A stretch of DNA of 64,000 nt. It comes from Sinomonas sp. ASV486 (GTDB lineage Bacteria; Actinomycetota; Actinomycetes; Actinomycetales; Micrococcaceae). Both the position numbers and the translations under genes were made by a program. Positions 9,941 through 35,400 of the stretch are shown in pieces (the first letter of the stretch is position 1; each line of letters opens with the position of its first letter). The notes under the pieces were generated by a model, which was not told the DNA's origin, made no database searches, and worked only from the letters and a program-made list of their open reading frames with translations. Location of the stretch: the NCBI RefSeq assembly GCF_030908215.1, contig NZ_JAVFJK010000002.1, positions 186,001-250,000 of the forward strand. The letters run 5' to 3'.

Positions 9941-10079
9941 GGCCCCGCCCGTCTGGGGCCCTTGCCGCCGTCTGGGCGCGCCGCTCCGCCCTCCGTTTAG
10001 GGGCGCCCCGCCGTCCGTCTGAGGGTCACCTCCTGTTGGTCTTTGTCAGCACATTGACCTTCAGGAGGTGACCTTCAGG
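9941..10079. repeat. convergent intergenic region with hairpins and GTCACCTCC repeat copies
   Basis: Between two convergent genes lie a 6-bp GGCCCC/GGGGCC hairpin (9941-9960), repeated CCGTCTGGG words, and a longer inverted repeat whose arms are GGTCACCTCCTG (10024-10035) and CAGGAGGTGACC (10062-10073). TGACCTTCAGG then occurs twice, 14 bases apart (10055 and 10069). The TCACCTCC core is shared with tandem repeats elsewhere in the window. Termination is the likely minimum function. Confidence 0.55.
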
Positions 10080-10136
10080 GTGTGACTCCCAGACGTAGAG
10101 GGCCGCGCCCGGTAGAGGGCTACTTCGCGTAGGCGA

Positions 10137-11546
10137 CTACTTCGTGGCCGCCGGCGCGAGGGCCCCAAGGACCTCCTCGGCTGCGCGGCGGCCCATGCGC
10201 AGCGCGCCGTCGACGTGCTGGAAGCCCTCGGCCGCGAGGTCGGAGCAGGCCCAGTGGATCGAACCAACGGGCGTGCGCTGGTCGGCACCGTAGCGGGACA
10301 GTCCGCCGAGGTCGAAGCTCGCCGCGTACGCGCCGCGGGTCCATTCCTCGGAGCCCCAGTCGGACTCGTAGTAGACCTCGGGGACGAGCGCGTCATCGCC
10401 GAGGTAGCGTGCGATGGACGTCAAGATCGCTGCCTTGCGCTCCTCGGCGGTGAGGCGGAACATCGCGTCGGCCTTCTCGTCCGAGACGAAGGCCACGAGG
10501 GTGCCGCGGGAGTCGCCGTGATTCGTGTTGTCGTAGACCTCCTGGACGAGCTCACCGGCGCCGAAGCACGTGCCCGAGAGCCCTGACTCGCGCCAGAACG
10601 GGCGCTCGTACACCGCATGGACCTTGATGACGAGGCCCATCGAGAGGTGCTGGTGCAGCTGGTGCTGGCGACGCGGGAGCGCCGGGACGTACGAGATGCG
10701 GCTGTAAAGCGTGGGCGGGACGGCGAGGATAGCCCGGCGCGCGGTGACGGTGACGCGCCCGGAGGTGCCGCCGTCGGCCGTCGCGACAACGCCGTGCTCG
10801 CCCCATTCCAGAGTGCGCACGGGCGCGCCGAGGACCACGGAGTCACCGAGCTCAGCGGCCATGGCCTCGCTCACGGACTGCATCCCGCCCACTACACGCT
10901 GGTCGAGGATGAAGTCCTCGTCCTGGAGGTTGCTGAACGAGCCGGCCGAGGCTGCCATGAGCACGGCCTGCAGTGCCGAGAACGCGTGCGCGGGCTTGGT
11001 GAGCATGCCCCCGGCGATGAAGAGGCCGATCAGGTTGCAGGCTTCCTCGTCCGCGGACTGGGCGCGGAGCCAGTGCTGGAAGCTAACAGTGTCGAGCTCG
11101 CGGGCCTTCGGGTGCGCCCATGGCTCCTCTGCGCCGATCTCGGCTGCGAGGTCGTCGAGGATCCCGGTGATCCGTTCCACCTCGGCGAGCGTCCCCGGGG
11201 AGACCGGGAAGTCGGCGCCCGAGTAGACCGTGCGAGTGCCGTCGGGGGCCACGTAGACGCTGTCGCCCTCGCGGTAGCGCTTGAAGGTGGCCTTGCCGAG
11301 CTCGGCGACGAGGCCGAGGAGCTCGGTCTGGTCCGGGCTGATCCACTGGCCGCCGATCTCGAGGAATGCGCCGTCGATCGTGTCGCTCCACGTACGGCCG
11401 CCTACGCGGTCGCGGGCCTCGAGAACCACGACGCGCTGGCCCTCCTTCGCGAGTGTGCGGGCGGCCATGAGGCCAGCGGGACCGGCTCCGACGACGACGA
11501 CATCGGCATCGCGGGTCTGCTCGGCGGGGATCTGGGGTTGGGACAT
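10137..11546 (-). CDS. puo: flavin monoamine oxidase, probable putrescine oxidase
   Basis: The 469-residue cytoplasmic flavoprotein has an N-terminal FAD motif VVVGAGPAGLMAARTL followed by EARDRVGGRTWS and GGQWISPDQTELL, hallmarks of the amine oxidase family. EEWTRGAYAASF and GSIHWACSDLA lie in the C-terminal flavin-binding end. Actinobacterial putrescine oxidases have this size and layout; they oxidise putrescine to 4-aminobutanal with H2O2. The neighbouring agmatine deiminase and N-carbamoylputrescine amidase make putrescine, which supports this substrate. The gene has AAGGAAG before the ATG. Its promoter overlaps a palindrome also found before aguB, so TetR control is likely. Another primary amine remains possible. 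Confidence 0.8.
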   Translation of the reverse strand: MSQPQIPAEQTRDADVVVVGAGPAGLMAARTLAKEGQRVVVLEARDRVGGRTWSDTIDGAFLEIGGQWISPDQTELLGLVAELGKATFKRYREGDSVYVAPDGTRTVYSGADFPVSPGTLAEVERITGILDDLAAEIGAEEPWAHPKARELDTVSFQHWLRAQSADEEACNLIGLFIAGGMLTKPAHAFSALQAVLMAASAGSFSNLQDEDFILDQRVVGGMQSVSEAMAAELGDSVVLGAPVRTLEWGEHGVVATADGGTSGRVTVTARRAILAVPPTLYSRISYVPALPRRQHQLHQHLSMGLVIKVHAVYERPFWRESGLSGTCFGAGELVQEVYDNTNHGDSRGTLVAFVSDEKADAMFRLTAEERKAAILTSIARYLGDDALVPEVYYESDWGSEEWTRGAYAASFDLGGLSRYGADQRTPVGSIHWACSDLAAEGFQHVDGALRMGRRAAEEVLGALAPAATK

Positions 11547-11584
11547 GATCTCTTCCTTCGGGAGGGATGTGGGGGAGGTCTCAA

Positions 11585-11617
11585 AATGAATCTAGTTCAT
11601 TAATAGCCTTAGGACAA
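11585..11617 (-). promoter_or_regulatory. puo promoter overlapped by candidate TetR operator
   Basis: On the minus strand, TTGTCC (11612-11617) and TAGATT (11589-11594) are separated by 17 bases, a good sigma-70-type pair. The palindrome AATGAA-N5-TTCATT (11585-11601) covers the -10 box and part of the spacer. The same palindrome with one change stands before aguB, on the other side of tetR. A repressor bound here would block the promoter. Confidence 0.6.
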
Positions 11618-11631
11618 CCCTCCCGCCTCGA

Positions 11632-11681
11632 GTTGAGGGGTCACTTCCCCGTTGAGGGGTCACTTCCCCGATGAGGGGTCA
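11632..11681. repeat. 19-bp tandem repeat ending at the tetR stop codon
   Basis: Two tandem 19-bp units, TCACTTCCCCGTTGAGGGG (11641-11659) and a one-base variant (11660-11678), are preceded by a partial unit. The third TCA (11679-11681) is the tetR stop codon read on the other strand. An inverted copy of the same unit lies upstream of tetR, at about 12438-12456. Confidence 0.75.
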
Positions 11682-12371
11682 GGCGCGGATGGCGCGCACG
11701 GACGCGAGCGTTCCCCGCAGACCGGCAACCAGGGCGTTGAGCCCCACGCCGAAGGCCGCATCGGCCGCGGCCGCGCCCCGCCCGGGGCGGGCTGCGACGG
11801 CGTCGGCAAACGTGGGAGCCAGCTCGCGTCGCTCACCGACGTCGAAGATCCCCTCTGGCGCGGAGACATCCATTGCAGACCCGAGCACGAACGACTCGAC
11901 GGCCACCACCACGTCCACCACCATGTCCAGCGGCCATCCGCCGCCCCTGAGCCCCTCGGCCACCCGCTCGTACATGGCCAGGGTGTGCGGCGCGCCGGCC
12001 ACGGGGAACACCGCGATGATGGGGATGAGGGGCAGGTGCGGCGCGAAGGCCTCGCGATAGGAGTGGGCCCATCTGGTGATCGCGAGGTCCCAGGGGTCCA
12101 CGCCGAATCCGGAGGTGTCGATCGTCTCGCACACGTCATCCTGCACCCAGTTGAGGACCTCGTCCTTCGACTCCACGTGGTTGTAGAGCGCGGACGGCGC
12201 GGTCTTGAGTTCGCGCGCGAGTGCCGCCATGGTGAAGCCCTCATAGCCAGCCCGGGCGACGACGGCGAGCGCCGCCTCGGTGATCTTGCCGCGCGAGAGC
12301 ACGGGCCGCGGGGGGCGGCCGCGGCGCCGTGGGGCAGCCGGCTGCTGCGCGTCGGGATCGGGGGCATCCAT
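11679..12371 (-). CDS. TetR/AcrR family transcriptional regulator of the agmatine/putrescine genes
   Basis: The 230-residue protein has an Arg/Pro-rich N-terminus (residues 1-25) followed by a TetR helix-turn-helix: SRGKITEAALAVVARAGYEG then FTMAALARELKTAPSALYNH. The rest is the helical ligand-binding domain. It lies between puo (same strand, downstream) and the divergent aguB-aguA operon. Matching palindromes in both promoter regions make it the probable repressor of both, with putrescine or agmatine a plausible ligand (inference). The start was placed at 12371; longer upstream reading runs through repeat sequence and is unlikely. Confidence 0.85.
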   Translation of the reverse strand: MDAPDPDAQQPAAPRRRGRPPRPVLSRGKITEAALAVVARAGYEGFTMAALARELKTAPSALYNHVESKDEVLNWVQDDVCETIDTSGFGVDPWDLAITRWAHSYREAFAPHLPLIPIIAVFPVAGAPHTLAMYERVAEGLRGGGWPLDMVVDVVVAVESFVLGSAMDVSAPEGIFDVGERRELAPTFADAVAARPGRGAAAADAAFGVGLNALVAGLRGTLASVRAIRA

Positions 12372-12382
12372 GGTTCGGAGTC

Positions 12383-12456
12383 TAGTGACCCCCCCGATAC
12401 AGGGACGCGACTTCGCGTCGTTGGGAGGTGACCCCCCACCGGGGAAGTGACCCCTC
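12383..12456. repeat. degenerate 19/21-bp tandem repeats upstream of tetR
   Basis: Read on the minus strand, the segment contains a 19-bp unit beginning TCACTTCCCC (revcomp of about 12438-12456). A 21-bp unit beginning TCACCTCCCAACGA (12411-12431) and a decayed unit beginning TCGCGTCCCTG (12390-12410) follow, then GTCAC. The first matches the array at the tetR 3' end and the second matches the array at 35332, which links the two repeat types. Confidence 0.65.
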
Positions 12457-12502
12457 ATCGCGGGGTGGGGGTTGACCGTGGCGCAGATCACGTGCTCTCA
12501 TA

Positions 12503-12519
12503 AACGAACGTCGTTCATT
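12503..12519. promoter_or_regulatory. candidate TetR operator before aguB
   Basis: The palindrome AACGAA-N5-TTCATT has arms that extend outward to TAAAYGAA/TTCRTTTA. It lies in the 219-base gap between tetR and aguB, 72 bases before the aguB start. It matches the palindrome over the puo promoter at 11585-11601 in spacing and in 11 of 12 arm bases. Confidence 0.6.
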
Positions 12520-12590
12520 TACAGGCACCCCCAGCCCGTCACCAGACAGCCCTAGCCCGTCCCCCACCACTTCCCGCGAAGGACTTCCCC

Positions 12591-14764: not shown

Positions 14765-14881
14765 CCCATCCCTCACCCACTCGCACCCGAGGGGACCCTC
14801 CCCAGGGATCCGGAATGCCGGACCCATCGCCCATCCGCCCCGTTGCCCGCGGCGGATTGCACAAAGGAAAATGGCCTCAAG

Positions 14882-17515: not shown

Positions 17516-18010
17516 GTGGGCTGGCTCGTTCGGCCGGCCGCACCCCGGGACCTCGCGGCGATCAACGCCGTCTCGCGCGCGGCCGGGCGGCCCGAGTGGG
17601 ATCCCACGGCCGTCGCGCCGGCGTCGGACCGCTGCGCCGTCGTCGCCCTCGCTGCCGGCGTCCTGGTAGGCGCCGCCAAGACCCACCGCTATCCGCTCGC
17701 CGACGGCGACGCGCCCGCCGGGCACTACCTCGGCGGCGTCGTGGTGCATCCGGACGCCCGACGCCGCGGCGCGGGGCGGGCCCTCACGGCCGCGCGCCTT
17801 GCGTGGATCTGGGAGCTCGCGGACGTGGCCTACTACATCGCCAACGCGCGCAATGCGGCGTCGATCGCACTGCACGCGGGGTTCGGGTTCTTCCCGATCG
17901 CCGCGGGGCCACAGTTCCATGGCGTGACGTTCGACGGCGGTCGCGGGCTCGTGCTCGCCGCCCGCCGACCGGATTCGGCGCGGCAGAGGGGCCGCGCACT
18001 CGAGACGTGA
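17516..18010 (+). CDS. GNAT family N-acetyltransferase
   Basis: The product is about 164 residues from a GTG at 17516 with GAGGG five bases upstream; a GTG at 17480 is an alternative. The GNAT acetyl-CoA site appears as YLGGVVVHPDARRRGAGRALTAARL. The C-terminal NARNAASIALHAGFGF is the usual last beta-strand/helix region. The acceptor is unknown. The stop codon TGA lies inside the first unit of a tandem repeat (18003-18066). It follows the aminotransferase by 40 bases and is probably cotranscribed. Confidence 0.8.
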   Translation: MGWLVRPAAPRDLAAINAVSRAAGRPEWDPTAVAPASDRCAVVALAAGVLVGAAKTHRYPLADGDAPAGHYLGGVVVHPDARRRGAGRALTAARLAWIWELADVAYYIANARNAASIALHAGFGFFPIAAGPQFHGVTFDGGRGLVLAARRPDSARQRGRALET

Positions 18011-18066
18011 CCCCGCAACCCGTCAGACGTGACTCCGCAACCCTGAGACGTGACCACGCAACCCTG
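18003..18066. repeat. three tandem 21/22-bp repeats, first overlapping a stop codon
   Basis: Three units start at 18003 (22 bp), 18025 and 18046 (21 bp each), consensus AGACGTGACYCCGCAACCCTG. Read on the minus strand and rotated they become TCACGTCTCAGGGTTGCGGG, which aligns with the unit at 35332. The TGA of the first unit is the stop of the acetyltransferase gene. The array lies between convergent genes. Confidence 0.75.
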
Positions 18067-18095: not shown

Positions 18096-18743
18096 TCAGG
18101 CCGAGGCCTGGTCCAGGTCCAGGGTGTGGAGGGTGTGATCGCGCTTGGTCGCGAGGTAGAAGGCGTTCGCCGCCGAGAGGTGCACGCCCGTGGGGACGCG
18201 CTCGGCAACCTCGATCCCGAGCGACTCGAGCTGGGCGGCCTTGTCCGGGTTGTTGCTCAGGAGCCGGATCCGCGTGGCGCCCACGACCCGGAGCATCTGT
18301 GCGGCGGCACGGTAGTCCCGCTCGTCCTCGCCGCGACCTAGAGCGCGGTTCGCGGCGTAGGTGTCGAGACCCTGGTCCTGGAGCGCATAGGCGTCGAGTT
18401 TGGCGTACAGCCCGATCCCCCGGCCCTCCTGGCGCAGGTAGAGCAAGAACCCGCCCGCCCCGGAGATGCGCTCGGCGGCCTCGCGCAGCTGGGGCCCGCA
18501 GTCGCAGCGCTGGGAACCCAGCACGTCCCCCGTGAGGCACTCGCTATGCGGACGCACAAGGGGCGGCTCACCGCCGTCGGCCGCCCGGGCCAGCGCGCCC
18601 TCCCAGTCGCCGAGCCCGAGCAGGAGGTGCTCCCGGTGGTCGGCGAGGTGTCGGAACGTGAAGACGTCCGCCGTGGTGGCGAACCCGTCGCCGAAGCGAA
18701 GGGGAACCCGCACGCGCGTGCGCACCTCTGGTCTTGCTGGCAT
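18096..18743 (-). CDS. ribA: GTP cyclohydrolase II
   Basis: This is the first enzyme of riboflavin synthesis, turning GTP into the diaminopyrimidinone with release of formate. The 215-residue stand-alone RibA shows the zinc ligands Cys69, Cys80 and Cys82 (SECLTGDVLGSQRCDCG) and the catalytic RQEGRGIGL at 104-112. It is not fused to a DHBP synthase domain as in many actinobacterial RibBA proteins, so it may be an accessory copy. It diverges from a flavoprotein gene across a 79-base, relatively AT-rich gap. Confidence 0.92.
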   Translation of the reverse strand: MPARPEVRTRVRVPLRFGDGFATTADVFTFRHLADHREHLLLGLGDWEGALARAADGGEPPLVRPHSECLTGDVLGSQRCDCGPQLREAAERISGAGGFLLYLRQEGRGIGLYAKLDAYALQDQGLDTYAANRALGRGEDERDYRAAAQMLRVVGATRIRLLSNNPDKAAQLESLGIEVAERVPTGVHLSAANAFYLATKRDHTLHTLDLDQASA

Positions 18744-18822: not shown

Positions 18823-20343
18823 GTGACCGAATCTGCGCAATCCAAGGCCATGTCCCTGTGGGTTGCAACCGCGGAGGGCACCCAGTATTCCCGCCTCGAG
18901 GAAGACCTCGAGGTCGATGTCGCAGTGATCGGCGGCGGCATCGCCGGGCTCACGGCAGCCTACGAGCTCAAGCGCCGCGGCCTCACCGTCGCGGTTCTCG
19001 AGGGGTCCCGGATCGGCACCGGCGTCACAGGGAGCACCACGGGCAAGGTCACCTCGCTCCACCGCCTCGCCTACACCCAGCTGGCCGCGGATCACGGCAT
19101 GGAGGCCGCGCGCGCCTATGGACAGGCCAACGAGGCCGCCCTCGCCTACATCGCGGCGACCGTCGAGGCCGAAGGCCTCGAGTGCGGCTTCCGGCGAGTC
19201 TCGAACTACACCTACGCCGAGGCCGGCGGCGAGCATCTTGCGGCCGTCCGCGCAGAGGCCGAGCTCGCCGCGCGGCTCGGCCTCCCGGCTTCGTTCACCA
19301 CGGACGTCCCGCTCCCCTTCGCCACCCAGGGCGCCGTCCGCTTCGAGGACCAGGCCCAGTTCCATGCGATGAAGTACCTCCAGGGGCTCGCCCGGGCAGT
19401 CGACGGCGGCGACAGCGTCGTCGTCGAACGCACGCCTGTGCGCGCGGTCCACGACGGCACCCCGGCCGTGGCCGTGACCGACCACGGCACCGTCCGGGCG
19501 CGGGAGATCGTCGTTGCGACGAACGTCCCGATGGGCGACGGCGGCCGGTACAGCGGCCGCCTCACGATCCACCGCTCGTACATCGTCGCGAGCCCTGCCG
19601 ACGGACTGCCGGCCGACGCGACGTTCATCAGCGCCGACGAGCCCATGCGCTCGATCCTCACCACCCGCGAGGACGGGACGGACTATGTCCTCGTGGGCGG
19701 CGAGGGCCACCCCGCGGCGGAAGGAGACACCGGCGGAGGCTCTGCTGCGCGCCTCGAGCGGCTCGCCGAGTTCTCCCGCGAGCGCCTCGGCGGCGGCGAG
19801 CCAGCCTACCGCTGGTCCACCCAGGACACCCTCCCGGTGGACGGCCTCCCGTTCGCGGGCCCGCTGACTCCCGACTCGCGCCACCTGTACGTCATCACAG
19901 GCCTGCGCAAATGGGGTCTCACCAACGGCACAGCGTCCGCCCTCGTCGTCGCCGACGCGGTCACCGGCGCCGCGAGCGCCTGGGCCGGCCTCTTCGACAG
20001 CACGCGGAAACTCGGCCCGGCGTCCGCGCAGGGACGCGAACGAGCGGAGGCCGAGGCTCCCCTCCCGCCGTGGCGGGGCCTCCCGCGGCTCGCCCCCGGG
20101 GAGGGCGCCGTGTTCGACGTCGGAGGAAAGGCAACAGCGGTCTACGCGGACGCCGCCGGGGTCGTGCATGCCCTCTCGGCCCGCTGCACCCACCTGCGCT
20201 GCGTCGTCGAGTTCGCCCATGGCGCCGACGGCGCCGAGCCGACGTGGGACTGCCCGTGCCACGGCTCGCGGTTCGCCCTCGACGGTACGGTCATCCAGGG
20301 GCCGGCCGAGAAGGACCTGGCCCATCGCGACATGCCGGACTGA
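18823..20343 (+). CDS. FAD-dependent oxidoreductase fused to a C-terminal Rieske [2Fe-2S] domain
   Basis: The product has 506 residues. The first 400 form a DAO-type flavoprotein: VAVIGGGIAGLTAAYELKRR at about 33-52, GTGVTGSTTGKVTSLH with the FAD loop, and LYVITGLRKWGLTNGTASAL at the C-terminal flavin end. Residues 410-506 form a Rieske domain with ligands Cys455/His457 (CTHL) and Cys477/His480 (CPCHGSRF). This matches the YhfW type of oxidoreductase, function not settled. The start is GTG 18823 with AGGAGG six bases upstream. The neighbour, ribA, makes flavin precursor. Confidence 0.88.
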   Translation: MTESAQSKAMSLWVATAEGTQYSRLEEDLEVDVAVIGGGIAGLTAAYELKRRGLTVAVLEGSRIGTGVTGSTTGKVTSLHRLAYTQLAADHGMEAARAYGQANEAALAYIAATVEAEGLECGFRRVSNYTYAEAGGEHLAAVRAEAELAARLGLPASFTTDVPLPFATQGAVRFEDQAQFHAMKYLQGLARAVDGGDSVVVERTPVRAVHDGTPAVAVTDHGTVRAREIVVATNVPMGDGGRYSGRLTIHRSYIVASPADGLPADATFISADEPMRSILTTREDGTDYVLVGGEGHPAAEGDTGGGSAARLERLAEFSRERLGGGEPAYRWSTQDTLPVDGLPFAGPLTPDSRHLYVITGLRKWGLTNGTASALVVADAVTGAASAWAGLFDSTRKLGPASAQGRERAEAEAPLPPWRGLPRLAPGEGAVFDVGGKATAVYADAAGVVHALSARCTHLRCVVEFAHGADGAEPTWDCPCHGSRFALDGTVIQGPAEKDLAHRDMPD

Positions 20344-20381: not shown

Positions 20382-20489
20382 GGGCCGGGCGGGGCGCGCC
20401 CCCCCCCCCGCGGGCCCCGGGGGGGCGGGGGCCCGGGGGGGGGGGGGGGGGCCCCCCCCCCCCCCCCCCCCCCGGGGCCCCCGGGGCCG
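20382..20489. other. extreme G/C homopolymer tract (possible assembly artefact)
   Basis: The gap between two convergent genes consists almost only of G and C, including 17 G (20435-20451) followed directly by 22 C (20452-20473), plus several shorter runs. It would form a long perfect hairpin. A GC-rich terminator is expected here, but such runs are hard to sequence and the exact sequence should be doubted. Confidence 0.7.
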
Positions 20490-20491
20490 GC

Positions 20492-21508
20492 TCAGACCCG
20501 CTTGAGGAACGACTCGACCTTGGAGGGGTCCCGCTCGACGACGTCGCCCGACTCGGGGTGGACCAGTGCCTCGTCGACCCGCGCGAGGAGCGCCGGGTCG
20601 AGGACCACGCCGGAGGCCGTCGCGTTGTCGCGCAGCTGGTCCGGCTTCGACGCGCCCACGATCGCGGCCGAGACGTTCCTGTTCTGCAGGACCCACGCGA
20701 CCGCGAACGCCGCCATGGACAGGCCCGCCTCCTGCGCGAGCGGGCGCAGCGCCTGGACCCGCTCGAGCACTGCCGGCTGCAGGTAGCGATGGTCAGCCTT
20801 GACCGTTCCCTCGGCAGTCGAGAACCGGGACTCGGCCGGCGCCGCCTCGGCCCCCGGCAGGTACTTGCCCGTCAGGACTCCCTGCGCGATGGGCGACCAC
20901 ACGATCTGGCCGAGCCCCAGCTCCTCGGACAGCGGGACGATCTCGGGCTCGATGACCCGCCAGAGCATGTTGTACTGCGGCTGGTTCGACACGAGCTGGA
21001 TCCCGAGCTCCTTGGCAAGGGCGGCGGCCGCGCGGATCTCGTCGGCGGTCCACTCTGACACGCCAATGTAGTGGGCCTTGCCGGCGTGCACGATGTCCGC
21101 GAACGCGCCCATGGTCTCCTCGAGCGGCGTCTCGTAGTCGTAGCGGTGGGCCTGGTAGAGGTCCACGTACTCCGTGCGGAGGCGGCGGAGAGAGCCGTTG
21201 ATGGACTCCATGATGTGCTTGCGGGACAGTCCGCGGTCGTTCCTGCCCTCGCCCGTGGGGAAGTAGACCTTCGTGAAGATCTCGAGCCCCTCGCGGCGGA
21301 CGCCGGTCAGGGCCTCGCCGAGGGCGGTCTCGGCGCGGGTGCCGGCGTAGGCGTCGGCGGTGTCGAACGTCGTGATGCCCAGATCCAGGGCCGTGCGGAC
21401 GCACTCGGTGGCCGTCTCCTGGTCGATCTGGTCACCGTGCGTGACCCAGTTGCCGTAGGCGATCTCGGACACGTACATGCCGCTGGTGCCGAGGCGACGG
21501 TATTCCAT
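20492..21508 (-). CDS. aldo/keto reductase
   Basis: The 338-residue (alpha/beta)8 NADPH-dependent oxidoreductase begins MEYRRLGTSGMYVSEIAYG. It has the tetrad residues in TTFDTADAYAGTRAETALG (Asp, Tyr), the Lys in EIFTKVYFP and the His in DLYQAHRYDYETPLEETM, with NADPH-binding VWSPIAQGVLTGKY and AIVGASKPDQLRDN at the end. The layout is of the Kv-beta-subunit/YghZ-like group. GGAAGGA precedes the ATG. The natural substrate is unknown. It is convergent with the Rieske flavoprotein across the homopolymer region. Confidence 0.88.
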   Translation of the reverse strand: MEYRRLGTSGMYVSEIAYGNWVTHGDQIDQETATECVRTALDLGITTFDTADAYAGTRAETALGEALTGVRREGLEIFTKVYFPTGEGRNDRGLSRKHIMESINGSLRRLRTEYVDLYQAHRYDYETPLEETMGAFADIVHAGKAHYIGVSEWTADEIRAAAALAKELGIQLVSNQPQYNMLWRVIEPEIVPLSEELGLGQIVWSPIAQGVLTGKYLPGAEAAPAESRFSTAEGTVKADHRYLQPAVLERVQALRPLAQEAGLSMAAFAVAWVLQNRNVSAAIVGASKPDQLRDNATASGVVLDPALLARVDEALVHPESGDVVERDPSKVESFLKRV

Positions 21509-27545: not shown

Positions 27546-27575
27546 AACGATATATCGTTGAATGTCGGAGAACAA
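27546..27575 (-). promoter_or_regulatory. padR promoter with palindromic operator
   Basis: On the minus strand, TTGTTC (27570-27575) and TATCGT (27547-27552) are 17 bases apart. The perfect palindrome AACGATATATCGTT (27546-27559) covers the -10 box. It is the only AT-rich perfect palindrome near the gene and has the ATAT-centred form often bound by PadR proteins, so autoregulation is likely. Confidence 0.65.
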
Positions 27576-27588
27576 GCCCTTTGTCGCC

Positions 27589-27798
27589 GAGGTCACCCCG
27601 TGTGTACCCGAGGTCACCCCGTGTGTACCCGACGTCACCCCGTGCAGGGCCGAGGTCACCCCTTGCAGGGCCGAGGTCACCCCGTGTGTACCCGAGGTCA
27701 CCCCGTGTGTACCCGACGTCACCCCGTGCAGGGCCGAGGTCACCCCTTGCAGGGCCGAGGTCACCCCGTGTGTACCCGAGGTCACCCCTTGCAGCGCC
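27589..27798 (+). repeat. ten-unit 21-bp tandem array with 84-bp higher-order period
   Basis: Ten units of 21 bp, each beginning GAGGTCACCCC or GACGTCACCCC, lie end to end. Unit types run A A B C A A B C A D, where A ends GTGTGTACCC, B and C end TGCAGGGCC and D ends TGCAGCGCC. The order therefore repeats every four units (84 bp). A decayed eleventh unit follows. It lies in the 563-base gap between padR and the downstream end of an AhpD-like gene. It faces an inverted array at 27951. Confidence 0.9.
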
Positions 27799-27950
27799 GA
27801 CATCGCCCGGTGAACCCCGGACCGCCTTCACGACTCCAGACACAACTACTGCCCCGACCCGCGTCTCCTGGGCGACTACCAAGGAAATGCGGCTCGGGGC
27901 AGCACATGAATACTCGGACGGGCGTGCCACCGGTCTTGACACGCCAACGG

Positions 27951-28045
27951 GTGACCTCAGCGCCACACGGGGTGACCTCGGCCCCACACGGCGTGACCTC
28001 GGCCCCACACGGGGTGATCTCGGGCGCACACGGGGTGACCTCGGC
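27951..28045 (-). repeat. inverted 21-bp tandem array facing the 27589 array
   Basis: Five copies of GTGACCTC (the fourth GTGATCTC) start at 27951, 27972, 27993, 28014 and 28035, exactly 21 bp apart. Read on the minus strand the unit is GAGGTCACCCCGTGTGGGGCC, the same unit as the first array in opposite orientation. The 152 bases between the arrays hold no gene I can support. The array ends eight bases before the stop of the AhpD-like gene. Confidence 0.85.
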
Positions 28046-28052
28046 GAAGGGG

Positions 28053-28532
28053 TTAGGGCTTGATCTTGTGGCGGCTCACGATCGAGAGGCGGTTGAACGT
28101 GTTCATCGAGATGGCCGCCCAACAGAGGGCAGAGAACCGCTCGTCCCCCAGTTCAGCGCGGGCACCGGCGAGGACCGCAACACGCTCGTCGTCGTCCGGG
28201 AGCAGGGTGACGGCCTCGGCGATGTCGAGGGCAGCACGTTCGAGCACCGTGAAGATGCCGGCTTCGCGCCAGGCGGGCAGGACGTTGAGCTTGCGGACCG
28301 GCACGCCCGCCTCGGCGGCCTGGCGCCCGTGGAGATCCAGGCAATAGGTGCAGCGGTTGATCTGCGAGATGCGCAGGCTCAGGAGTTCGACGACGTCGCG
28401 AGGCAGCCCCGCGGCGTCGGTCGCCTCGTGGACCGTGGTCCGGAAGGCGACGAGCGCCTTCCAGACCGTCGGGTTGGCCTTGTCGAGATAGAACGCGGGC
28501 TCGTCGTCGAGATCGAGGGCGGAGTTCGTCAT
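28053..28532 (-). CDS. carboxymuconolactone decarboxylase / AhpD-like peroxidase family protein
   Basis: The 159-residue, all-helical protein has the family motif Cys-x-x-Cys-x3-His in RISQINRCTYCLDLHGRQA, the redox pair of AhpD-type alkylhydroperoxidase proteins. The rest (AWREAGIFTVLERAALDIAE, CWAAISMNTFNRLSI) fits the family. It may reduce peroxides or act as a thiol redox protein; it is not a gamma-carboxymuconolactone decarboxylase of the 3,4-pathway by context, because the pathway here is 4,5-cleavage. It is flanked by repeat arrays on both sides. Confidence 0.85.
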   Translation of the reverse strand: MTNSALDLDDEPAFYLDKANPTVWKALVAFRTTVHEATDAAGLPRDVVELLSLRISQINRCTYCLDLHGRQAAEAGVPVRKLNVLPAWREAGIFTVLERAALDIAEAVTLLPDDDERVAVLAGARAELGDERFSALCWAAISMNTFNRLSIVSRHKIKP

Positions 28533-28605: not shown

Positions 28606-28686
28606 GTTGCGGGGTCTCTGGCACGCGCTTGAGGGGTCTCCGGTCAGACCGGAGACCCCTCAATGGGGCGCCAGAGACCCCTCAAC
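28606..28686. repeat. 81-bp nested palindrome built from four copies of one 17-bp motif
   Basis: Four 17-bp copies of GTTGAGGGGTCTCYGGY-type sequence are arranged two forward and two reverse: outer arms 28606-28622 and 28670-28686 (one mismatch), and inner arms 28629-28645 and 28647-28663 (perfect, one base between). The two spacers are both six bases. It lies between pobA and the AhpD-like gene, both on the minus strand, so it would fold in RNA as a very long hairpin after pobA. Confidence 0.85.
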
Positions 28687-28726: not shown

Positions 28727-29917
28727 CTACTTGGTCGGCCACCCCGTGTAGCACTCGGCGATGTAGGCGCGGCCGCGCTCGGACTCGAGCAGCGAGCGGA
28801 GCTCACCGAGCTGGCGGGCACGGAAGAACTCGTGGTTCGTCTCGGTCGGGACGGTGTGCAGGAGCGTCGTCATCCAGTAGGAGAAGTACTGCGCCTTCCA
28901 CACGCGGTCCAGCGCGCGGTCCGAGTAGGTGTCGATCAGCGCCGTCGAGCCGGACTTGAAGTACGAGTCGAGGCTCTCGAACAGCAGGCGCATGTCATGC
29001 AGGGCCAGATTGAGGCCCTTGGCACCGGTCGGCGGGACGGTGTGGGCGGCGTCGCCCGCGAGGAACAGGTTGCCGTGGCGCATCGGCGCCTGGACGAACG
29101 AGCGGAACGGCAGCACGACCTTGTCCGTGACGGGCCCCTCCTTGAGCTCGAAGCCGTTGCCGTTGACGCGCAGGCGCAGCTGCTCCCAGATCTGCTCGTC
29201 GGTCCAGTCCGCGGGGTTGGCGGACGGGTCGCACTGGAAGTACATGCGCTGCACCGTGTCGGTACGCTGGCTGATGAGCGCGAAGCCGTGCTCGGAGTTC
29301 GCGTAGATGAGCTCGGGCGAGCTGCGCGGGGCCTCGGTGAGGATGCCGAACCAGGCGAACGGGTACTCGTTGAAGTACGTCTTGCGGCTGGCTTCGGGGA
29401 CCTGGCGGCGGCAGTACGAGCGCGAGCCGTCAGCGCCGACAAGGATCTCTGCGCGCAGCTCGAAGTCCGTACCCTCGGAGTCCGTGAAGAACACCGAGGG
29501 CCTGCCGAGCAGGTCGTAGACATCGGTGTTCGAGCACGAGTAGCGCACGTCGCCGCCGTCGGCCTCACGGCGCGCTGCGAGGTCGTCGAACACGTCATTC
29601 TGCGGGTAGAGCCACACCGAGCTGCCCGTGAGCCCCTTGAAGTCGATGCGGTGACCCTCGCCGTTGACGCGGAACTCGGTGCCCTCGTGCTCGTGGCCGT
29701 TCCGGAGCACGTTGTCCACCCCGGACTGCACGAGCAGGTCCACGCTCCCCGCCTCGAGGATGCCGGCGCGGATCGTCGCCGAGATCTCCGCGCGGGAGCG
29801 GATCTCCACGACCGTGTTGTCGATGCCCGCCTGGTGCAGGAGGTGCGAGAGCATGAGGCCCGCGGGCCCGGCGCCCATGATGGCGACTTGGGTGGTGATG
29901 ACGGTGCGATCGCCCAT
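28727..29917 (-). CDS. pobA: 4-hydroxybenzoate 3-monooxygenase
   Basis: PobA hydroxylates 4-hydroxybenzoate to protocatechuate with FAD, NAD(P)H and oxygen. The 396-residue protein is the normal length. Motifs: IMGAGPAGLMLSHLLHQAG (FAD), VEIRSRAEI, RIRAGILE-like segment (TIRAGILEAGSVDLL), VGADGSRSYCR (the DG motif, both FAD and NADPH contact) and LAGDAAHTVPPTGAKGLNLA (the GD motif). AAAGGA precedes the ATG. An IclR regulator lies just upstream on the same strand with a palindrome between them. Its product is the substrate of the ligAB operon about 12 kb away. Confidence 0.95.
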   Translation of the reverse strand: MGDRTVITTQVAIMGAGPAGLMLSHLLHQAGIDNTVVEIRSRAEISATIRAGILEAGSVDLLVQSGVDNVLRNGHEHEGTEFRVNGEGHRIDFKGLTGSSVWLYPQNDVFDDLAARREADGGDVRYSCSNTDVYDLLGRPSVFFTDSEGTDFELRAEILVGADGSRSYCRRQVPEASRKTYFNEYPFAWFGILTEAPRSSPELIYANSEHGFALISQRTDTVQRMYFQCDPSANPADWTDEQIWEQLRLRVNGNGFELKEGPVTDKVVLPFRSFVQAPMRHGNLFLAGDAAHTVPPTGAKGLNLALHDMRLLFESLDSYFKSGSTALIDTYSDRALDRVWKAQYFSYWMTTLLHTVPTETNHEFFRARQLGELRSLLESERGRAYIAECYTGWPTK

Positions 29918-30025
29918 GATCGGTCCTTTCAGGAAAATTCGGGAAAAACGGAGCCAGCCGGCGGGATCCGCTGCGGCGTGCGTCTCATTCGAGTGTGACG
30001 CCGCTCGCTCCCCCGCGCGAAGCCA

Positions 30026-30042
30026 ATTCCGTTGATCGGAAT
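30026..30042. promoter_or_regulatory. palindrome upstream of pobA, candidate IclR operator
   Basis: ATTCCG-TTGAT-CGGAAT is a 17-bp inverted repeat in the 166-base gap between the IclR-family gene and pobA, about 110 bases before the pobA start. IclR-type regulators often bind 14-17-bp palindromes of this kind. The link is from position. Confidence 0.5.
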
Positions 30043-30083
30043 AGCAAGTTCAAACCGAGAGCCGCGCTCCGCCGTCGTGCGCC

Positions 30084-30833: not shown

Positions 30834-30917
30834 GCCGCTCCCCTTCCTCCGCCTCGGCTTTCAGCCCGGCGCGGACCCTCCAGATTCCATTCAATGGTCT
30901 CACGTGCCTGAGATCAT

Positions 30918-30927
30918 ACCGATCGGT
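30918..30927. promoter_or_regulatory. palindrome in the IclR / MFS divergent gap
   Basis: ACCGATCGGT is a perfect 10-bp palindrome in the 149-base divergent gap. CCATT-C-AATGG at about 30887-30897 is a second one. Either could be an operator for the adjacent IclR protein. Neither matches the palindrome before pobA closely. Confidence 0.35.
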
Positions 30928-30982
30928 GATAGAACTCTCACGTCCAGGCACCGCCGTGCCCTCCTTGACCCCCGAGGTAGCA

Positions 30983-32317: not shown

Positions 32318-32320
32318 GCG

Positions 32321-32398
32321 CGTTCCGTCAGGCACAACTCACGCCGCTGGTGGGCCGTTTCCTGGCCCCAGCGCGCGTGGGTTGTGCCTGACGGAACG
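32321..32398. terminator. long hairpin between convergent transporter genes
   Basis: 18-base perfect arms, starting CGTTCCGTCAGGC (32321-32338) and ending GCCTGACGGAACG (32381-32398), continue with further pairing inward. The hairpin fills the whole gap between the MFS stop and the TDT stop. It probably terminates both transcripts. No T tract is present. Confidence 0.75.
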
Positions 32399-33481
32399 TC
32401 AATCCCTCACGCGAGGCCGAACGAGCGTGGCCCACAGGTGCCAGAGCATCCCGCCGAACGTGGCCAGGAACGCCGCCACGGCCACCCAGAGCTCCGCCCG
32501 GCCGATGAACGCGACAATGGGCAGGCTGTCCGCCCGTCCCAGGTAGATGCCCGCTACGGCATACATGCCGAGGGGGAAGATGACGCTCCACAGCCCGGGC
32601 TCGTAGGCGAGAGGCACGCGGTGGATGATGTGCCGCCACCAGCCGGCCGCCAGCAGCACGGGGAACAGCCAGGAGGCGAAGGACCAGAACACCACCGAGG
32701 AACCTGCCACGAGGCCCCGGGTCGCGTCGACCATGGGCGCGCCGGCCATCTCCACGATCCGCGCCCCCGCAAGGACGCTGATGGCCATCGCGCCCATGGC
32801 CACGAAGTACTGCGGGCGAAGGTCTTCCGGCCGTATGGGATAGGTCATGAGGCGCAGCGAGACGAAGATGCCCACGGCGGCGTACAGGATGAGTCCGACC
32901 GACCACGCCACTACGGCCACCAGGGCGAGGGCCGCGCGCCACTCCGAACCGGCGAGGGGCTCGAGGGAGGCTGAGGCGACGGCCACCGACTGGCTCGCAA
33001 CGACCCAGATGAACCACGTCCCGTTGGCATCCTTGACCACGGGCCGCTCGTCGCGGCCCAGCACGGCCGTCCAGGGCACCACGTAACCGAGCACCACCCA
33101 CGCGAGCACGGCAACGGCGAGCAGCACCGCTGTCGCACTCGGCCAGCCAGCCATCCCCAGCCGCACGCCGAGAACGTCGGTACCCGCGATGAACGTGAAG
33201 AAACCGAACGCGCGGCCGGGGTCCATGAAGTCGTGGCGCATCGCCTCGCGGAAGCGCACCAGGCGAACGAGGCTCAGTACGAGGATCACCGCGTAGGAGA
33301 CCGCGCAGACCACGAGCAGCGCCGCAGAGAGCCAGTGGATCCCCTCGAGCTCGAGGCCCACCGAGATGATCCCGCTCGCCATCGTGAGGGCGAAATACCC
33401 GGGTGTGAGGGTCTGCACCGCCTCGGCGACGCGGGAGGCGAAGGAGACCGGGGAACCCGGGGCATGGACGGCGGCGGTCAT
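32399..33481 (-). CDS. TDT family transporter (tellurite-resistance/dicarboxylate, SLAC1-like)
   Basis: The 360-residue integral membrane protein has about ten hydrophobic segments, with TPGYFALTMASGIISVG at the start of the family domain, FFTFIAGTDVLG and LWSVIFPLGMYAVA, all typical of the TehA/Mae1/SLAC1 (voltage-dependent anion channel) family. Substrates in the family include dicarboxylates, sulfite and chloride; none can be assigned here. The start was set at 33481, since longer reading runs into the next intergenic region. Confidence 0.88.
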   Translation of the reverse strand: MTAAVHAPGSPVSFASRVAEAVQTLTPGYFALTMASGIISVGLELEGIHWLSAALLVVCAVSYAVILVLSLVRLVRFREAMRHDFMDPGRAFGFFTFIAGTDVLGVRLGMAGWPSATAVLLAVAVLAWVVLGYVVPWTAVLGRDERPVVKDANGTWFIWVVASQSVAVASASLEPLAGSEWRAALALVAVVAWSVGLILYAAVGIFVSLRLMTYPIRPEDLRPQYFVAMGAMAISVLAGARIVEMAGAPMVDATRGLVAGSSVVFWSFASWLFPVLLAAGWWRHIIHRVPLAYEPGLWSVIFPLGMYAVAGIYLGRADSLPIVAFIGRAELWVAVAAFLATFGGMLWHLWATLVRPRVRD

Positions 33482-33557
33482 GGCTCCCAGCCTAAGTGGC
33501 ATCCGCCATGCGTGTTGGGGCCGCAGGTCCTGTGGTGCCCGGCCTCCCCGGACAAGA

Positions 33558-34574
33558 TCAGGGAACCAGGACCACTTTGCCGGTGTTGCGCCGGGCCTCG
33601 AGGTAGGCGTGGGCCTCGCCAGCGGAGGCGAGGGGGAACGTGCGGTCCACGTGCGGGCGCACCCAGCCGTCCTCGACGCCCTGCAGGAGCGCGTCCATCC
33701 ATCCACGAACCTTGTCGGTCTCGCTGAACAGGTGGCCCACGTTCACGCCGAACACACCGAGGTTCCGGTTCATGAGCGGGATCGGGTTGAACAGCGGCTG
33801 CCGCGCCACGAGCGCGAGGAGGCCGAGCTTCCCGGGCAGCCTCGAGGAGACCGCGCCGGAGACACTGAACATCCCGAGCCGCCCGGTGGAGCGCAGCACG
33901 CCGTAGCTCTGCTTCCAGTGCCGCCCTCCGAACGGGTCAACAACGAGCTCGACGCCCCGGCCCCCGGTCAGGGCCTTGGTCTCCGCGACCCAGTCCTGCG
34001 TGGTGTAGTCGATAGTCTCGTGGACGCCCCGGCCCTGGAGGAACTCATGCTTGCGCGCGCTGGCGGTGCCAATCATCCGCGCCCCGACGTGCCGGCCGAT
34101 GTCCACGGCCGCGAGCCCGACTCCCCCGCCCGCGTTGTGGATCAGCACGGTCTCGTCCGCGGAGAGCGAGCCCATGACCACCAGGAGCTGCCACGCCGCG
34201 AGGTAGTTCACCGGGACGGAGGCCGCCTGTTCGTGGGAGAGTCCGGCCGGCTTGTCGAACACCTGCTGCTGCGGGACGCACACCGTGTCTGAGTACCCGC
34301 CGAAGTGCGTGAGGGCAACCACGTCTCGCCCATCCCAGCGCGGATCCGCGTCCGGCCCGACGGCGTCCACGACTCCGGCGACCTCGTATCCGACGACCGC
34401 CGGGAAGCGGGACACATCCGGGTAGAACCCCTTGCGGGCGAGAACGTCCGCAAAGTTGACTCCGCAGGCAAGCGTGCGGATCCGGACCTCGCTGCCGCGC
34501 GGCATCGGGTCGGGTGCCTCGCGGAGGGTCAGCCGCTCGGGCCCACCAACACCGATGATCACTGCCTGCTTCAT
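33558..34574 (-). CDS. zinc-free medium-chain dehydrogenase, quinone oxidoreductase type
   Basis: The 338-residue protein has a GroES-like N-terminal domain (CGVNFADVLARKGFYPD, FPAVVGYEVAGVVDAVG) and a Rossmann NADPH domain with HNAGGGVGLAAVDIGR. The zinc-binding residues of alcohol dehydrogenases are absent, as in QOR/VAT-1 proteins. It likely reduces quinones or enones with NADPH. The ATG is preceded by GGAGGGTGGC, giving a good ribosome site. It is a single gene, divergent from hutD-like. Confidence 0.87.
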   Translation of the reverse strand: MKQAVIIGVGGPERLTLREAPDPMPRGSEVRIRTLACGVNFADVLARKGFYPDVSRFPAVVGYEVAGVVDAVGPDADPRWDGRDVVALTHFGGYSDTVCVPQQQVFDKPAGLSHEQAASVPVNYLAAWQLLVVMGSLSADETVLIHNAGGGVGLAAVDIGRHVGARMIGTASARKHEFLQGRGVHETIDYTTQDWVAETKALTGGRGVELVVDPFGGRHWKQSYGVLRSTGRLGMFSVSGAVSSRLPGKLGLLALVARQPLFNPIPLMNRNLGVFGVNVGHLFSETDKVRGWMDALLQGVEDGWVRPHVDRTFPLASAGEAHAYLEARRNTGKVVLVP

Positions 34575-34706
34575 GCCACCCTCCGTGCTCCGGTCCCGGG
34601 CGCGAGCCGTCAGGCCCCACCGCCGAGTGGATCATAGCCGGGCGAGGGAAACATCCGGCGGCGCGTGCCGCGTAGCCTTGGAGTGACCCGTCGAGGAAGG
34701 CGCCCC

Positions 34707-35327
34707 ATGTCCGAGCCCCGCATCATCCGCTTCGCCGACCTGCGCCCCGTCCGCTGGAAGAACGGCGGAGGGACAACGGTCGAGCTCGCCCGCGGGCCGG
34801 AAGTCGCCGGCGAAGATGGGGAGAGCACCTCCGGGGACTGGGGGTGGCGCCTGAGCATCGCCGACGTGGATCGGGCCGGCGACTTCTCTTCATTCGACGG
34901 CATGGAACGCATCCTGACCGTGATCGAGGGCGAGCTCATGGTCCTGACCGTGGACGGGCACGAGCACGGGCTCGAACGCCACCGGCCCTTCCGGTTCGAC
35001 GGCGGCGCGCCCGCGAGCGCGGTCCTGCCCACCGGATCGATCCGCGACCTCAACCTCATCACGCGACGCGGCTCGTTCACGGGGCACGTGACGATCCTCG
35101 AGCTCTCGAAGAAGCGCCCGCTGCCCCTCTCGGCGGGCCAGCTCGGGGTTCTGCTCCAGGGCGAGGCCGTCGCCTCGGGCGTCGGGAATGCAGCGGACGA
35201 CGGCGCCACTCCCCTCGCGCGGTACGACGCCGTGGTCGGTGGGGAACCTGCACCGGCTGTGAGCGGGCGAGGGTTCCTGGCCGTAGTGTCCGTGGATGCC
35301 GCTGACACCGACGCCGGCGAGGCTTGA
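34707..35327 (+). CDS. HutD/Ves family protein
   Basis: The 206-residue double-cupin protein has the family motif RWKNGGGTTVELA near the start, WRLSIADVDRAGDFSSFDG and ERILTVIEGELMVLTVDG. HutD proteins accompany histidine-use genes in some bacteria but have no proven enzymatic role; no hut genes are seen here. The start at 34707 has GAGGAAGG upstream. A tandem repeat array begins five bases after the stop. Confidence 0.85.
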   Translation: MSEPRIIRFADLRPVRWKNGGGTTVELARGPEVAGEDGESTSGDWGWRLSIADVDRAGDFSSFDGMERILTVIEGELMVLTVDGHEHGLERHRPFRFDGGAPASAVLPTGSIRDLNLITRRGSFTGHVTILELSKKRPLPLSAGQLGVLLQGEAVASGVGNAADDGATPLARYDAVVGGEPAPAVSGRGFLAVVSVDAADTDAGEA

Positions 35328-35331
35328 GGGC

Positions 35332-35400
35332 TCACCTCCCAACGATGCGGAGTCACCTCCCAACGATGCGGGGTCACCTCCTTGCGGGCGAAGGTACCTC
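35332..35400 (+). repeat. three-unit 21-bp tandem array after the hutD-like gene
   Basis: TCACCTCCCAACGATGCGGAG (35332-35352) is followed by a copy with one change (35353-35373) and a diverged third (35374-35394) that begins TCACCTCCTTGCGGG; TACCTC starts a fourth partial unit. The unit matches, on the other strand, the one upstream of tetR at 12411-12431 in 18 or so of 21 positions. This is the cleanest example of the TCACCTCC family. Confidence 0.85.

What the first reader, a model, noticed from the sequence alone, without database searches (positions are those of the whole stretch)
10024..35400. Family of short intergenic tandem repeats with a TCACCTCC-like core at eight loci
Seen: arrays at 10024-10079, 11632-11681, 12383-12456, 18003-18066, 27589-27798, 27951-28045, 28606-28686 and 35332-35400. 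Most have a unit of exactly 21 bp (some 19, 22 or 23) and contain TCAC followed by CTCC, TTCC, CCCG or GTCT. The cleanest unit (35332) aligns with a degenerate unit at 12411 on the other strand and with 18003 after rotation, so the arrays look like diverged members of one family. All are between genes. I do not recall a described family of this form. 21 bp is two helical turns, so each copy would present the same face to a protein.
Basis: partly seen in the sequence, partly recalled or inferred. Interest (0 to 1): 0.8.

Follow-up and report, generated by a model that had tools for sequence, protein, structure and literature searches.

The report
Sinomonas gene-end tandem repeat arrays
A soil bacterium and its closest relatives carry many short repeated DNA arrays, mostly sitting right where genes end and sometimes inside proteins, with a conserved core whose spelling changes from species to species; they look like a new style of gene-end repeat, whose maker and reader are unknown.

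Summary
A degenerate tandem core (GGGGTSWC twice, 18-23 bp apart) occurs 155 times in this genome, against 0 for the reversed pattern. It occurs at most 5 times in 142 other-genus Micrococcaceae, and a stricter form at most 3 times in 247 other genomes of the order. Ten of 15 congeners (Sinomonas) have 21-181 matches, five have 0 or 1. Four related unit types have periods of 19, 21, 21 and 22 bp. Of 45 intergenic arrays, 31 lie within 30 bp of a gene 3' end (6.0 expected) and 23 between convergent genes (4.5 expected). Half of the intergenic loci (21 of 41) are inverted pairs, which fold into strong hairpins; single arrays do not. At four gaps, congeners carry another array type or an ordinary hairpin. 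Only the 21-bp types lie in frame inside proteins (11 of 37 arrays, 0 of 19 others). The core after CCGAG differs between species. No RAYT transposase (0 of 15). Best reading: a REP/BIME-like system ending transcription where arrays are inverted; maker and any reader unknown. The 'same helical face' argument fails.

The parts
10024..10079 (.). Inverted pair of the GGGTCACCTCCTG type (12-base perfect arms, 26-base loop) plus a third degenerate unit, in the 214-bp gap between convergent gene models 9590-9922(+) and 10137-11546(-)
   Evidence: the gap folds with z -5.5; G135 holds a similar inverted set there, G104 an ordinary hairpin (z -5.9)
11632..11681 (+). Type B (19 bp, GTTGAGGGGTCACTTCCCC) x 2.6, running into the stop codon of gene model 11679-12302(-) (tetR-like by eye, not searched)
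   Evidence: the same gap carries eight cores of a 22-bp type in G150 and degenerate units in G104 and G135
12383..12456 (-). Two degenerate units (D and B types) in the divergent gap upstream of gene model 11679-12302(-); eight 22-bp units of another type at this place in G150
18003..18066 (-). D-like 21-bp array x3 (4 copies in same-species genome G153), overlapping the 3' end of the gene model ending at 18010, before convergent gene model 18096-18713(-); this gap does not fold better than shuffles (z +1.0)
   Evidence: hairpin at this place in G150 (z -2.6), 39-bp gap without array in G104
27587..27800 (-). Type A 21-bp array x ~10 (CCGAGGTCACCCCGTGTGTAC), left arm of an A pair; 7 copies in G153
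27849..27902 (.). Older terminator-like inverted repeat (CTGCCCCGACCCGC...GCGGCTCGGGGCAG) between the two A arrays; its counterpart stands without arrays in G104 (gap z -6.7)
27942..28046 (+). Type A 21-bp array x ~5, right arm of the pair; about 10 bp from the 3' end of gene model 28053-28532(-)
28606..28686 (.). Type C (22 bp, TTGnGGGGTCTCTGGC) inverted pair, two units per arm, between gene models 28053-28532(-) and 28727-29917(-)
   Evidence: gap z -6.2
35324..35388 (+). Type D (21 bp, GATGCGGAGTCACCTCCCAAC) x ~3, starting at the stop codon of gene model 34707-35327(+); gap z -0.4

Best explanation
A Sinomonas-specific superfamily of short tandem arrays (units 19, 21, 21 and 22 bp; shared core GGGGTSWC) that behaves like a REP/BIME system built from tandem units instead of palindromes. 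Shown: arrays sit at gene 3' ends and between convergent genes; inverted arrays form exceptionally stable predicted hairpins; copy number changes quickly while loci and cores persist between two genomes of one species; in other species some of the same gaps hold another subtype or an ordinary hairpin; 21-bp types also occur in frame in proteins. Inferred: locally inverted arrays serve as bidirectional transcription terminators or 3'-end protectors; units multiply by slippage, and new loci arise by ectopic copying with a host or mobile enzyme not identified here; single-orientation and in-frame copies are the tolerated by-product of that spread, kept alike by copying or by a core-recognising factor.
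For: Location: 31 of 45 intergenic arrays within 30 bp of a gene 3' end (expected 6.0, s.d. 2.3) and 23 of 45 convergent (expected 4.5, s.d. 2.0), 0 of 2000 permutations reaching either; 2 of 45 divergent. Structure: RNA fold z averages -9.4 over 12 inverted type C loci, -5.6 over 5 D and -5.8 over 4 A (one of these four, L015, is a chance match), against -1.3, -0.5 and -0.5 for 19 single A, 4 single B and 7 single D loci. Convergent gaps with inverted arrays: 12 of 13 have z < -3, against 19 of 43 array-free gaps. Four arrays leave only 0-7 bp to the stop codon on both sides. Same gaps in congeners: ordinary hairpin in G104 (10024, z -5.9), G150 (18003, z -2.6) and G135 (28606, z -3.0). Turnover: 21 of 21 located loci kept in the same-species genome, 12 of 21 with changed length. 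Core sites differ less than spacers (30 of 963 against 55 of 805, p = 3e-4). No locally inverted locus in CDS (0 of 11, against 21 of 41 intergenic; p = 0.0016).
Against: About half of the intergenic loci (20 of 41) are single-orientation, and single arrays do not fold better than shuffles. Five of 8 such convergent gaps have z > -1, so no hairpin is there to terminate; the window gaps at 18003 (z +1.0) and 35332 (z -0.4) are of this kind. In-frame copies cannot act as terminators. No transcript-end data exist here. Mobilisation by a Y1 transposase is not supported (0 of 15), so the spreading step has no known agent. No gain or loss of a whole array was seen in the 21 compared loci. U-tracts were not tested systematically. 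The core-versus-spacer rate is mildly biased, because units were found by matching a consensus in G000. Gene models are from a codon-usage script, not a curated annotation.
Confidence: 0.48

Rival explanations
1. The arrays are clustered binding sites for an unidentified sequence-specific DNA-binding protein (a roadblock, insulator or chromosome-organising factor). The core is the site, the variable part is spacer, and the species-specific cores reflect a protein whose specificity has shifted.
For: Cores conserved while spacers vary. The A and D core is a near palindrome (GRGGTSACCYC). Exact 12-base A and C cores occur 41 and 42 times in arrays and 0 times outside them in 603.5 kb, as if clustering matters. 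The A-type hexamer after CCGAG differs by species in the listed matches (GTCACC in G000, GTCGGG in G151, ATCGGG in G104, ATGGGG in G006). Opposite A arrays within about 1.2 kb face each other as CCGAG-> <-CTCGG: 7 of 7 pairs in the G000 sample (two chance hits, L046:4024 and L015:4864, left out), 9 of 9 among the listed places of G006, G104 and G151 and 4 of 4 among those of G121.
Against: Periods of 19, 21 and 22 bp do not keep one helical phase. Arrays are rare in divergent gaps (2 of 45). Several dialects coexist in one genome (G104, G006). No candidate protein was looked for genome-wide or found.
Confidence: 0.27
2. Neutral or selfish minisatellites: an expanding DNA repeat tolerated only where it does least harm (after stop codons, in protein linkers), with no function for the cell.
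For: Fast copy-number change; homogenised units within a locus; in-frame copies in unrelated proteins, several at termini or linkers; rarity in divergent gaps and, for frame-breaking periods, absence from CDS.
Against: Lower substitution in cores than in spacers. Inverted pairing and the fixed orientation of A pairs are not expected of random insertion. Some gaps stay occupied by changing subtypes or hairpins.
Confidence: 0.2
3. DNA uptake sequences for natural transformation, with species dialects as in Neisseriaceae.
For: Species dialects (PMC3630211: title, start of abstract and term counts seen in listing 73) and, as recalled, inverted copies at gene ends.
Against: Exact cores were never solitary in 603.5 kb. 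There are about 155 tandem matches per genome, not the hundreds to thousands of dispersed motifs described for uptake sequences (start of abstract of PMC2346458 in listing 73).
Confidence: 0.05

Closest known systems
REP / BIME elements (repetitive extragenic palindromes and their mosaics)
   Same: Dispersed short repeats in many copies, extragenic, in alternating orientation, hairpin-forming when inverted, sometimes reiterated in tandem and sometimes intragenic (passages of PMC3733652; starts of abstracts in listing 62); the gene-end preference is recalled
   Different: Units are 19-22 bp direct tandem repeats that do not fold on their own; no GTAG or CGTC tag in the consensus; no Y1 (RAYT) transposase found in 15 genomes; species dialects of the core
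Rickettsia palindromic elements (RPE)
   Same: Repeats found inside protein-coding genes (RPE-4, RPE-6 and RPE-1 named in a passage of PMC3733652)
   Different: RPE are palindromes; here the coding copies are 21-bp tandem arrays encoding 7-residue repeats, and no coding locus in the sample is locally inverted
STRR / LTRR tandem repeats of cyanobacteria and MIRU of mycobacteria
   Same: Dispersed, mostly intergenic tandem repeats with variable copy number in a lineage-specific family (recalled; searches gave only listings)
   Different: Unit lengths differ (heptamers, ~37 bp and 40-100 bp as recalled); inverted array pairs and a shifting core are not part of what I recall of them
DNA uptake sequence dialects (Neisseriaceae)
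   Same: A repeated word whose spelling differs between related species (PMC3630211 seen only in listing 73)
   Different: Here the exact word was found only inside tandem arrays

Membership tests
REP / BIME | Many dispersed copies, extragenic, at gene 3' ends and between convergent genes | tested here: met
   23 of 45 convergent, 31 of 45 within 30 bp of a 3' end; 155 matches
REP / BIME | Unit is an imperfect palindrome forming a stem-loop | tested here: not met
   single-orientation A, B and D loci fold like shuffles (mean z -1.3, -0.5, -0.5) and 2 single C loci average +1.15; stems arise only between inverted arrays
REP / BIME | GTAG or CGTC tag at the unit end | tested here: not met
   no such tag in the consensus of 113 A, 21 B, 61 C and 36 D units
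REP / BIME | RAYT (Y1 transposase, PF01797) in the genome | tested here: not met
   0 of 15 Sinomonas genomes; control rings in 5 of 14 known genomes
Intrinsic (hairpin) terminators | Stable hairpin just after the stop codon | tested here: met
   for inverted loci only: 12 of 13 convergent gaps z < -3, against 3 of 8 single-orientation gaps
Intrinsic (hairpin) terminators | Run of U after the stem, transcript ends there | not tested
   no systematic scan of U-tracts was made and there is no RNA data
RPE-like coding inserts | In-frame copies in proteins of known family | tested here: met
   E2 acyltransferase linkers, DUF4194 (MksE model below its cut-off), LUD-domain, chorismate-binding (PabB-like), DeaD, alpha-amylase-domain, HrpB and TilS proteins
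DNA uptake sequence | Solitary copies spread over the whole genome | tested here: not met
   0 exact A, B, C or D cores outside arrays in 603.5 kb
CRISPR array | Conserved repeats separated by unique spacers of similar length | tested here: not met
   neighbouring units share much of their variable part within a locus, and units are contiguous; cas genes were not searched for
Known RNA family | Match to Rfam 15 at gathering score | tested here: not met
   only a tRNA at 3850-3923 in the window

The most novel reading that the evidence does not exclude
A trans-acting, sequence-specific system (protein or copying machine) writes and maintains these arrays at gene ends across Sinomonas. When its specificity drifts, the core is rewritten across the genome, so that each species speaks its own dialect at shared loci (E2 linkers: GTCACC, GTSGGG or ATGGGG after CCGAG) with the same 21-bp period and the same facing orientation of paired arrays. 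That would be a kind of directed, specificity-switching repeat homing that I do not know from bacterial chromosomes.
Probability: 0.17. Interest if true: 0.88.

Novelty: new variant of a known kind. Interest (0 to 1): 0.63.

Why it matters
It gives a clade-specific example of how short repeats colonise gene ends without a detectable RAYT transposase, change spelling between species at shared loci, and enter conserved proteins in frame. Fifteen related genomes, two of them of one species, make the two open questions (what copies bacterial gene-end repeats, and whether they end transcription) testable by deletion, Term-seq and pull-down in a soil bacterium. The arrays are also ready-made variable-number markers for Sinomonas.

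Tried and rejected
RAYT/REP mobilisation: PF01797 not found in 15 of 15 genomes. Phage or plasmid carriage: the array region 27560-28060 has no match in 72,556 plasmid or 50,697 phage records; two tandem patterns in viral contigs gave 2 and 1 stretches, which on reading have other units than the Sinomonas consensus. DNA uptake sequence: argued against by the absence of solitary cores. Helical-face binding as the reason for 21 bp: rejected as a general rule because types B and C have 19 and 22 bp. A uniform RNA hairpin: rejected, since single arrays do not fold. An alternative hairpin word seen in congeners (TTYCCGACCTTGATTG, one mismatch allowed) turned out rare: 5, 2 and 3 copies in 3 of 9 genomes. 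Strict co-variation of the two arms of one locus: not consistent, as paired A arrays in G006 and G104 sometimes differ. The TCACCTCC string of type D equals the anti-Shine-Dalgarno end of 16S rRNA (recalled, no call); I treat it as coincidence because types A and C lack it.

Dropped rows and limits: L015:4864 (chance match) and L045:1663-1719 (degenerate) were left out of the CDS tests but are in the counts (13 in CDS). L046:4024 was left out of the orientation count because it is not an array. In one search only 21 of 54 merged loci were compared, because G153 stretches were fetched for part of the loci only. In one search seven gaps were looked at in G104, G135 and G150, and several flanks were missing from the fetched stretches (no usable comparison for 35332). 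G153 was left out of the core-agnostic comparison because its stretches were chosen around arrays (17 in 234 kb). Match listings of the genome searches are capped. The gene models were replaced by those; the script stopped with an error and was rerun.
Full report
What was checked. The window is bases 186001-250000 of contig C12 of a 4.28 Mb draft genome in 19 contigs. All eight reported loci hold repeats. Five are tandem arrays by Tandem Repeats Finder: 11632 (19 bp), 18002, 27587, 27942 and 35332 (all 21 bp). The loci at 10024 and 28606 are mainly inverted pairs, and 12383 is two degenerate units. The whole genome has 155 matches (79 forward, 76 reverse) to GGGGTSWCN{10,15}GGGGTSWC and none to the reversed pattern. 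In 603.5 kb of this genome (window plus 40 fetched stretches, 24 of them chosen because they held hits), scanning four consensus words with up to three mismatches gave 56 clusters of two or more units; the reversed sequence gave 1. That scan does not call 10024 and 18003 as clusters, so they are not in the counts below.

Four related unit types. Consensus sequences from units in arrays: A, 21 bp, CaCacGGGGTGACCTCGGc (113 units); B, 19 bp, GtTGAGGGGTCActTCCCc (21); C, 22 bp, gTTGnGGGGTCTCTGGCg (61); D, 21 bp, GATGCGGgGTCACCTCcC (36). Types B, C and D also resemble each other to the left of the core (TTGnGGGG or GATGCGGGG). The A and D core is a near palindrome, GRGGTSACCYC. The rest of each unit varies between loci but is largely shared by neighbouring units of a locus. 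Exact cores were never found alone: 41 A, 42 C, 6 B and 4 D exact matches lie in arrays and 0 outside. With up to three mismatches, 90 single hits were seen against 63 in the reversed sequence, so some decayed solitary units may exist.

Who has them. Among 149 genomes of the family, the 7 of the same genus (this one included) have 23-181 matches and the other 142 have at most 5. Among 248 genomes of the order, this genome has 106 matches to a stricter pattern and no other has more than 3; no other member of the genus was in that draw. A scan of 84,980 named species with the type C pattern returned 28 stretches: 19 from Sinomonas (S. albida, S. atrocyanea, S. cellulolyticus) and 9 from other organisms with one or two matches each. 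Contig lengths identify G084 with S. atrocyanea DS1015 and G149 with S. albida LC13, so the genus is Sinomonas. Within it, 10 of 15 genomes have 21-181 matches and five have 0 or 1. On a one-gene tree with midpoint rooting the five group together.

Dialects. The five are not free of arrays. Loosening the A core to CCGAGRTSRSS gave 39 matches in G151, 42 in G154, 31 in G104, 68 in G006 and 51 in G000, with 0 reversed-control matches in all 10 genomes searched; the other five had 1-4. A further 21-bp family, TGGGGARNMCGG, is found only in G149 (2), G151 (4), G154 (12), G155 (21) and G156 (16), with 0 in the other 10 and 0 controls. One gene shows the switch directly. The E2 acyltransferase has recognisable 21-bp arrays in the linkers around its E3-binding domain in 11 of 15 genomes: AEVTPSG/GVTSAP in G000, G153, G121, G135, G037 and, degenerate, G150 and G084; AEVGSG/TSA- or ISA-ending repeats in G104, G154 and G151; AEMGARA/APISA in G006. 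G149, G152, G155 and G156 have other linkers. A core-agnostic survey found 10 intergenic arrays of period 17-24 in 320 kb of G000, 11 in 160 kb of G006, 11 in 200 kb of G156, 2 in 200 kb of G104, 1 in 60 kb of G151, 0 in 80 kb of G154, and 4 that do not resemble these in 400 kb of four other genera. So the density is not uniform in the genus, and G104, G151 and G154 are near the outside level by this measure.

Where they sit. With codon-trained gene models, 58 arrays of the G000 sample were placed: 45 intergenic and 13 inside CDS. Of the 45, 23 are between convergent genes (4.5 expected), 31 lie within 30 bp of a gene 3' end (6.0 expected), and 2 are in divergent gaps. Four fill the gap almost to both stop codons (2/2, 4/5, 7/3 and 0/3 bp left). 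In the 320 kb chosen without regard to hits, 3 of 29 convergent gaps carry arrays, so arrays are common but not the usual gene end. After dropping one chance match and one doubtful case, 11 arrays lie in CDS, all of the 21-bp types A and D (11 of 37, against 0 of 19 for B and C; p = 0.010). They are in frame in an E2 acyltransferase (two arrays), a DUF4194 protein (N- and C-terminus), a LUD-domain protein, a chorismate-binding PabB-like protein, a DeaD helicase, an alpha-amylase-domain protein, HrpB, TilS and one protein without a Pfam match. Different arrays are read in different frames or strands (AEVTPSG, GVTSAP, LTGGDLG), so the DNA, not the peptide, is what is repeated.

Structure. Loci with arrays in both orientations within 150 bp fold far better than dinucleotide shuffles: mean z -9.4 for 12 C loci, -5.6 for 5 D, -5.8 for 4 A (one of them the chance locus L015; L010:5478 is also weak) and -9.1 for 1 B. 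Single loci do not: 19 A -1.3, 4 B -0.5, 7 D -0.5, 2 C +1.15 (coding loci included). Among 64 convergent gaps, 12 of 13 with inverted arrays, 3 of 8 with single arrays and 19 of 43 without arrays have z < -3. In the window, the gaps of 10024 and 28606 have z -5.5 and -6.2, those of 18003 and 35332 have +1.0 and -0.4. No locally inverted locus is in CDS (0 of 11, against 21 of 41 intergenic; p = 0.0016). Type A arrays of opposite strand within about 1.2 kb face as CCGAG-> <-CTCGG: 7 of 7 in the G000 sample (chance hits left out), 9 of 9 among listed places of G006, G104 and G151 and 4 of 4 of G121. In the cases read, they flank other, older DNA: a terminator-like hairpin (window 27849-27902, present without arrays in G104), the E3-binding domain, or most of a DUF4194 gene. 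C and D pairs show both arrangements.

Change over time. Against the same-species genome G153 (about 97% identical over the window), 21 of 21 loci that could be located keep their array. Twelve of 21 differ in length, about eight of them by roughly one or more units; in some others the change lies beside the units. At 18003, outside that set, there are 3 against 4 units. Core positions differ at 30 of 963 sites, spacers at 55 of 805 (p = 3e-4) and flanks at 53 of 1240. Across species some gaps are re-used. The 11632 gap has type B in G000, eight cores of a 22-bp type in G150 and degenerate units in G104 and G135. The 28606 gap has a C hairpin in G000, a 15-bp type in G104, G150 and G084, and a plain hairpin in G135 (z -3.0). 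The 18003 gap has a hairpin in G150 (z -2.6) and is only 39 bp in G104; the 10024 gap has a hairpin in G104 (z -5.9) and a similar inverted set in G135. The 27589 gap has arrays in G153 and G135 but not in G104 or G150.

Interpretation. The positions, the hairpins and the exchange with ordinary hairpins make a role at transcript ends likely for inverted loci. The coding copies, the rarity in divergent gaps and the frame rule show that the repeats also spread, or are tolerated, without that role. This is the REP/BIME pattern (extragenic, alternating, sometimes intragenic; passages of PMC3733652, and starts of abstracts in listing 62), but three REP hallmarks fail here: palindromic unit, GTAG/CGTC tag and RAYT. 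I therefore call it REP-like in behaviour, not a REP family. What copies the units to new loci is unknown. A DNA-binding reader is the main rival and is favoured by the conserved core, the lack of solitary exact cores, the fixed facing of A pairs and the dialects.

Literature. Searches for Arthrobacter or Micrococcaceae repeats, Sinomonas with tandem repeat and Sinomonas with repeat and intergenic listed no paper that by title or start of abstract is about such arrays. A term search in PMC12306157 showed only a table row for an Arthrobacter; of PMC3733652 I saw passages. This covers open-licence PMC papers only.

None of them called for a change of odds.

Noticed in passing
window and L009-L028: The 12-mer CGCCGTCGTGCG and neighbours are strongly over-represented (54 against about 2 expected in 464 kb); possibly a second genome-wide word unrelated to the arrays.
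   Followed up: no
G153, G135, G104 chromosomes: Listed type A array loci are denser in the second half of the chromosome as deposited: 18 of 23 (p 0.011), 18 of 25 (p 0.043) and 11 of 15 (p 0.12); the lists were capped, the test is after the fact and the origin was not located.
   Followed up: partly
L067 about 1530-3020 (G104:C1, about 4044.7-4046.2 kb): An insertion of about 1.4 kb (transposase-like by eye, not searched) beside the array has its own tandem 25-bp repeats near its ends, a possible model for how such arrays could mark element ends.
   Followed up: no
L185:1-140 (IMG/VR contig 3300037117_000039): A viral contig carries a 21-bp repeat GATGCCCGTGAGGTCACCCCT; if read in the frame that ends at a TAA it would encode DAREVTP repeats, close to the coding copies in Sinomonas.
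   Followed up: partly
L184:3540-3660 (IMG/VR contig 2634166199_000001): Tandem GTGGAGGGGTGACCTCCAC-like units: similar core, but a different, more palindromic unit.
   Followed up: no
window 20412-20490: Long G and C homopolymer runs (G-rich, then a 22-base C run) in the gap between convergent gene models 18823-20343(+) and 20492-21508(-).
   Followed up: no
L155, L156, L157 (G156): The GGGGTSWC-poor genome has 19-, 21- and 22-bp arrays of its own (CGTCCCTCAGCCACATGAG, GTGGGGAAGCCGGTTCGAGAG, CGACGAGTGGCCAGATCTCGCT), possibly dialects of types B, A/D and C; only the 21-bp one was tested genome-wide.
   Followed up: partly
G121 C17 and C5: In the G121 assembly the two flanks of the gap that holds the A arrays in G000 lie on different contigs, one hit starting 170 bases from its contig start, as if the arrays defeat short-read assembly.
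   Followed up: no
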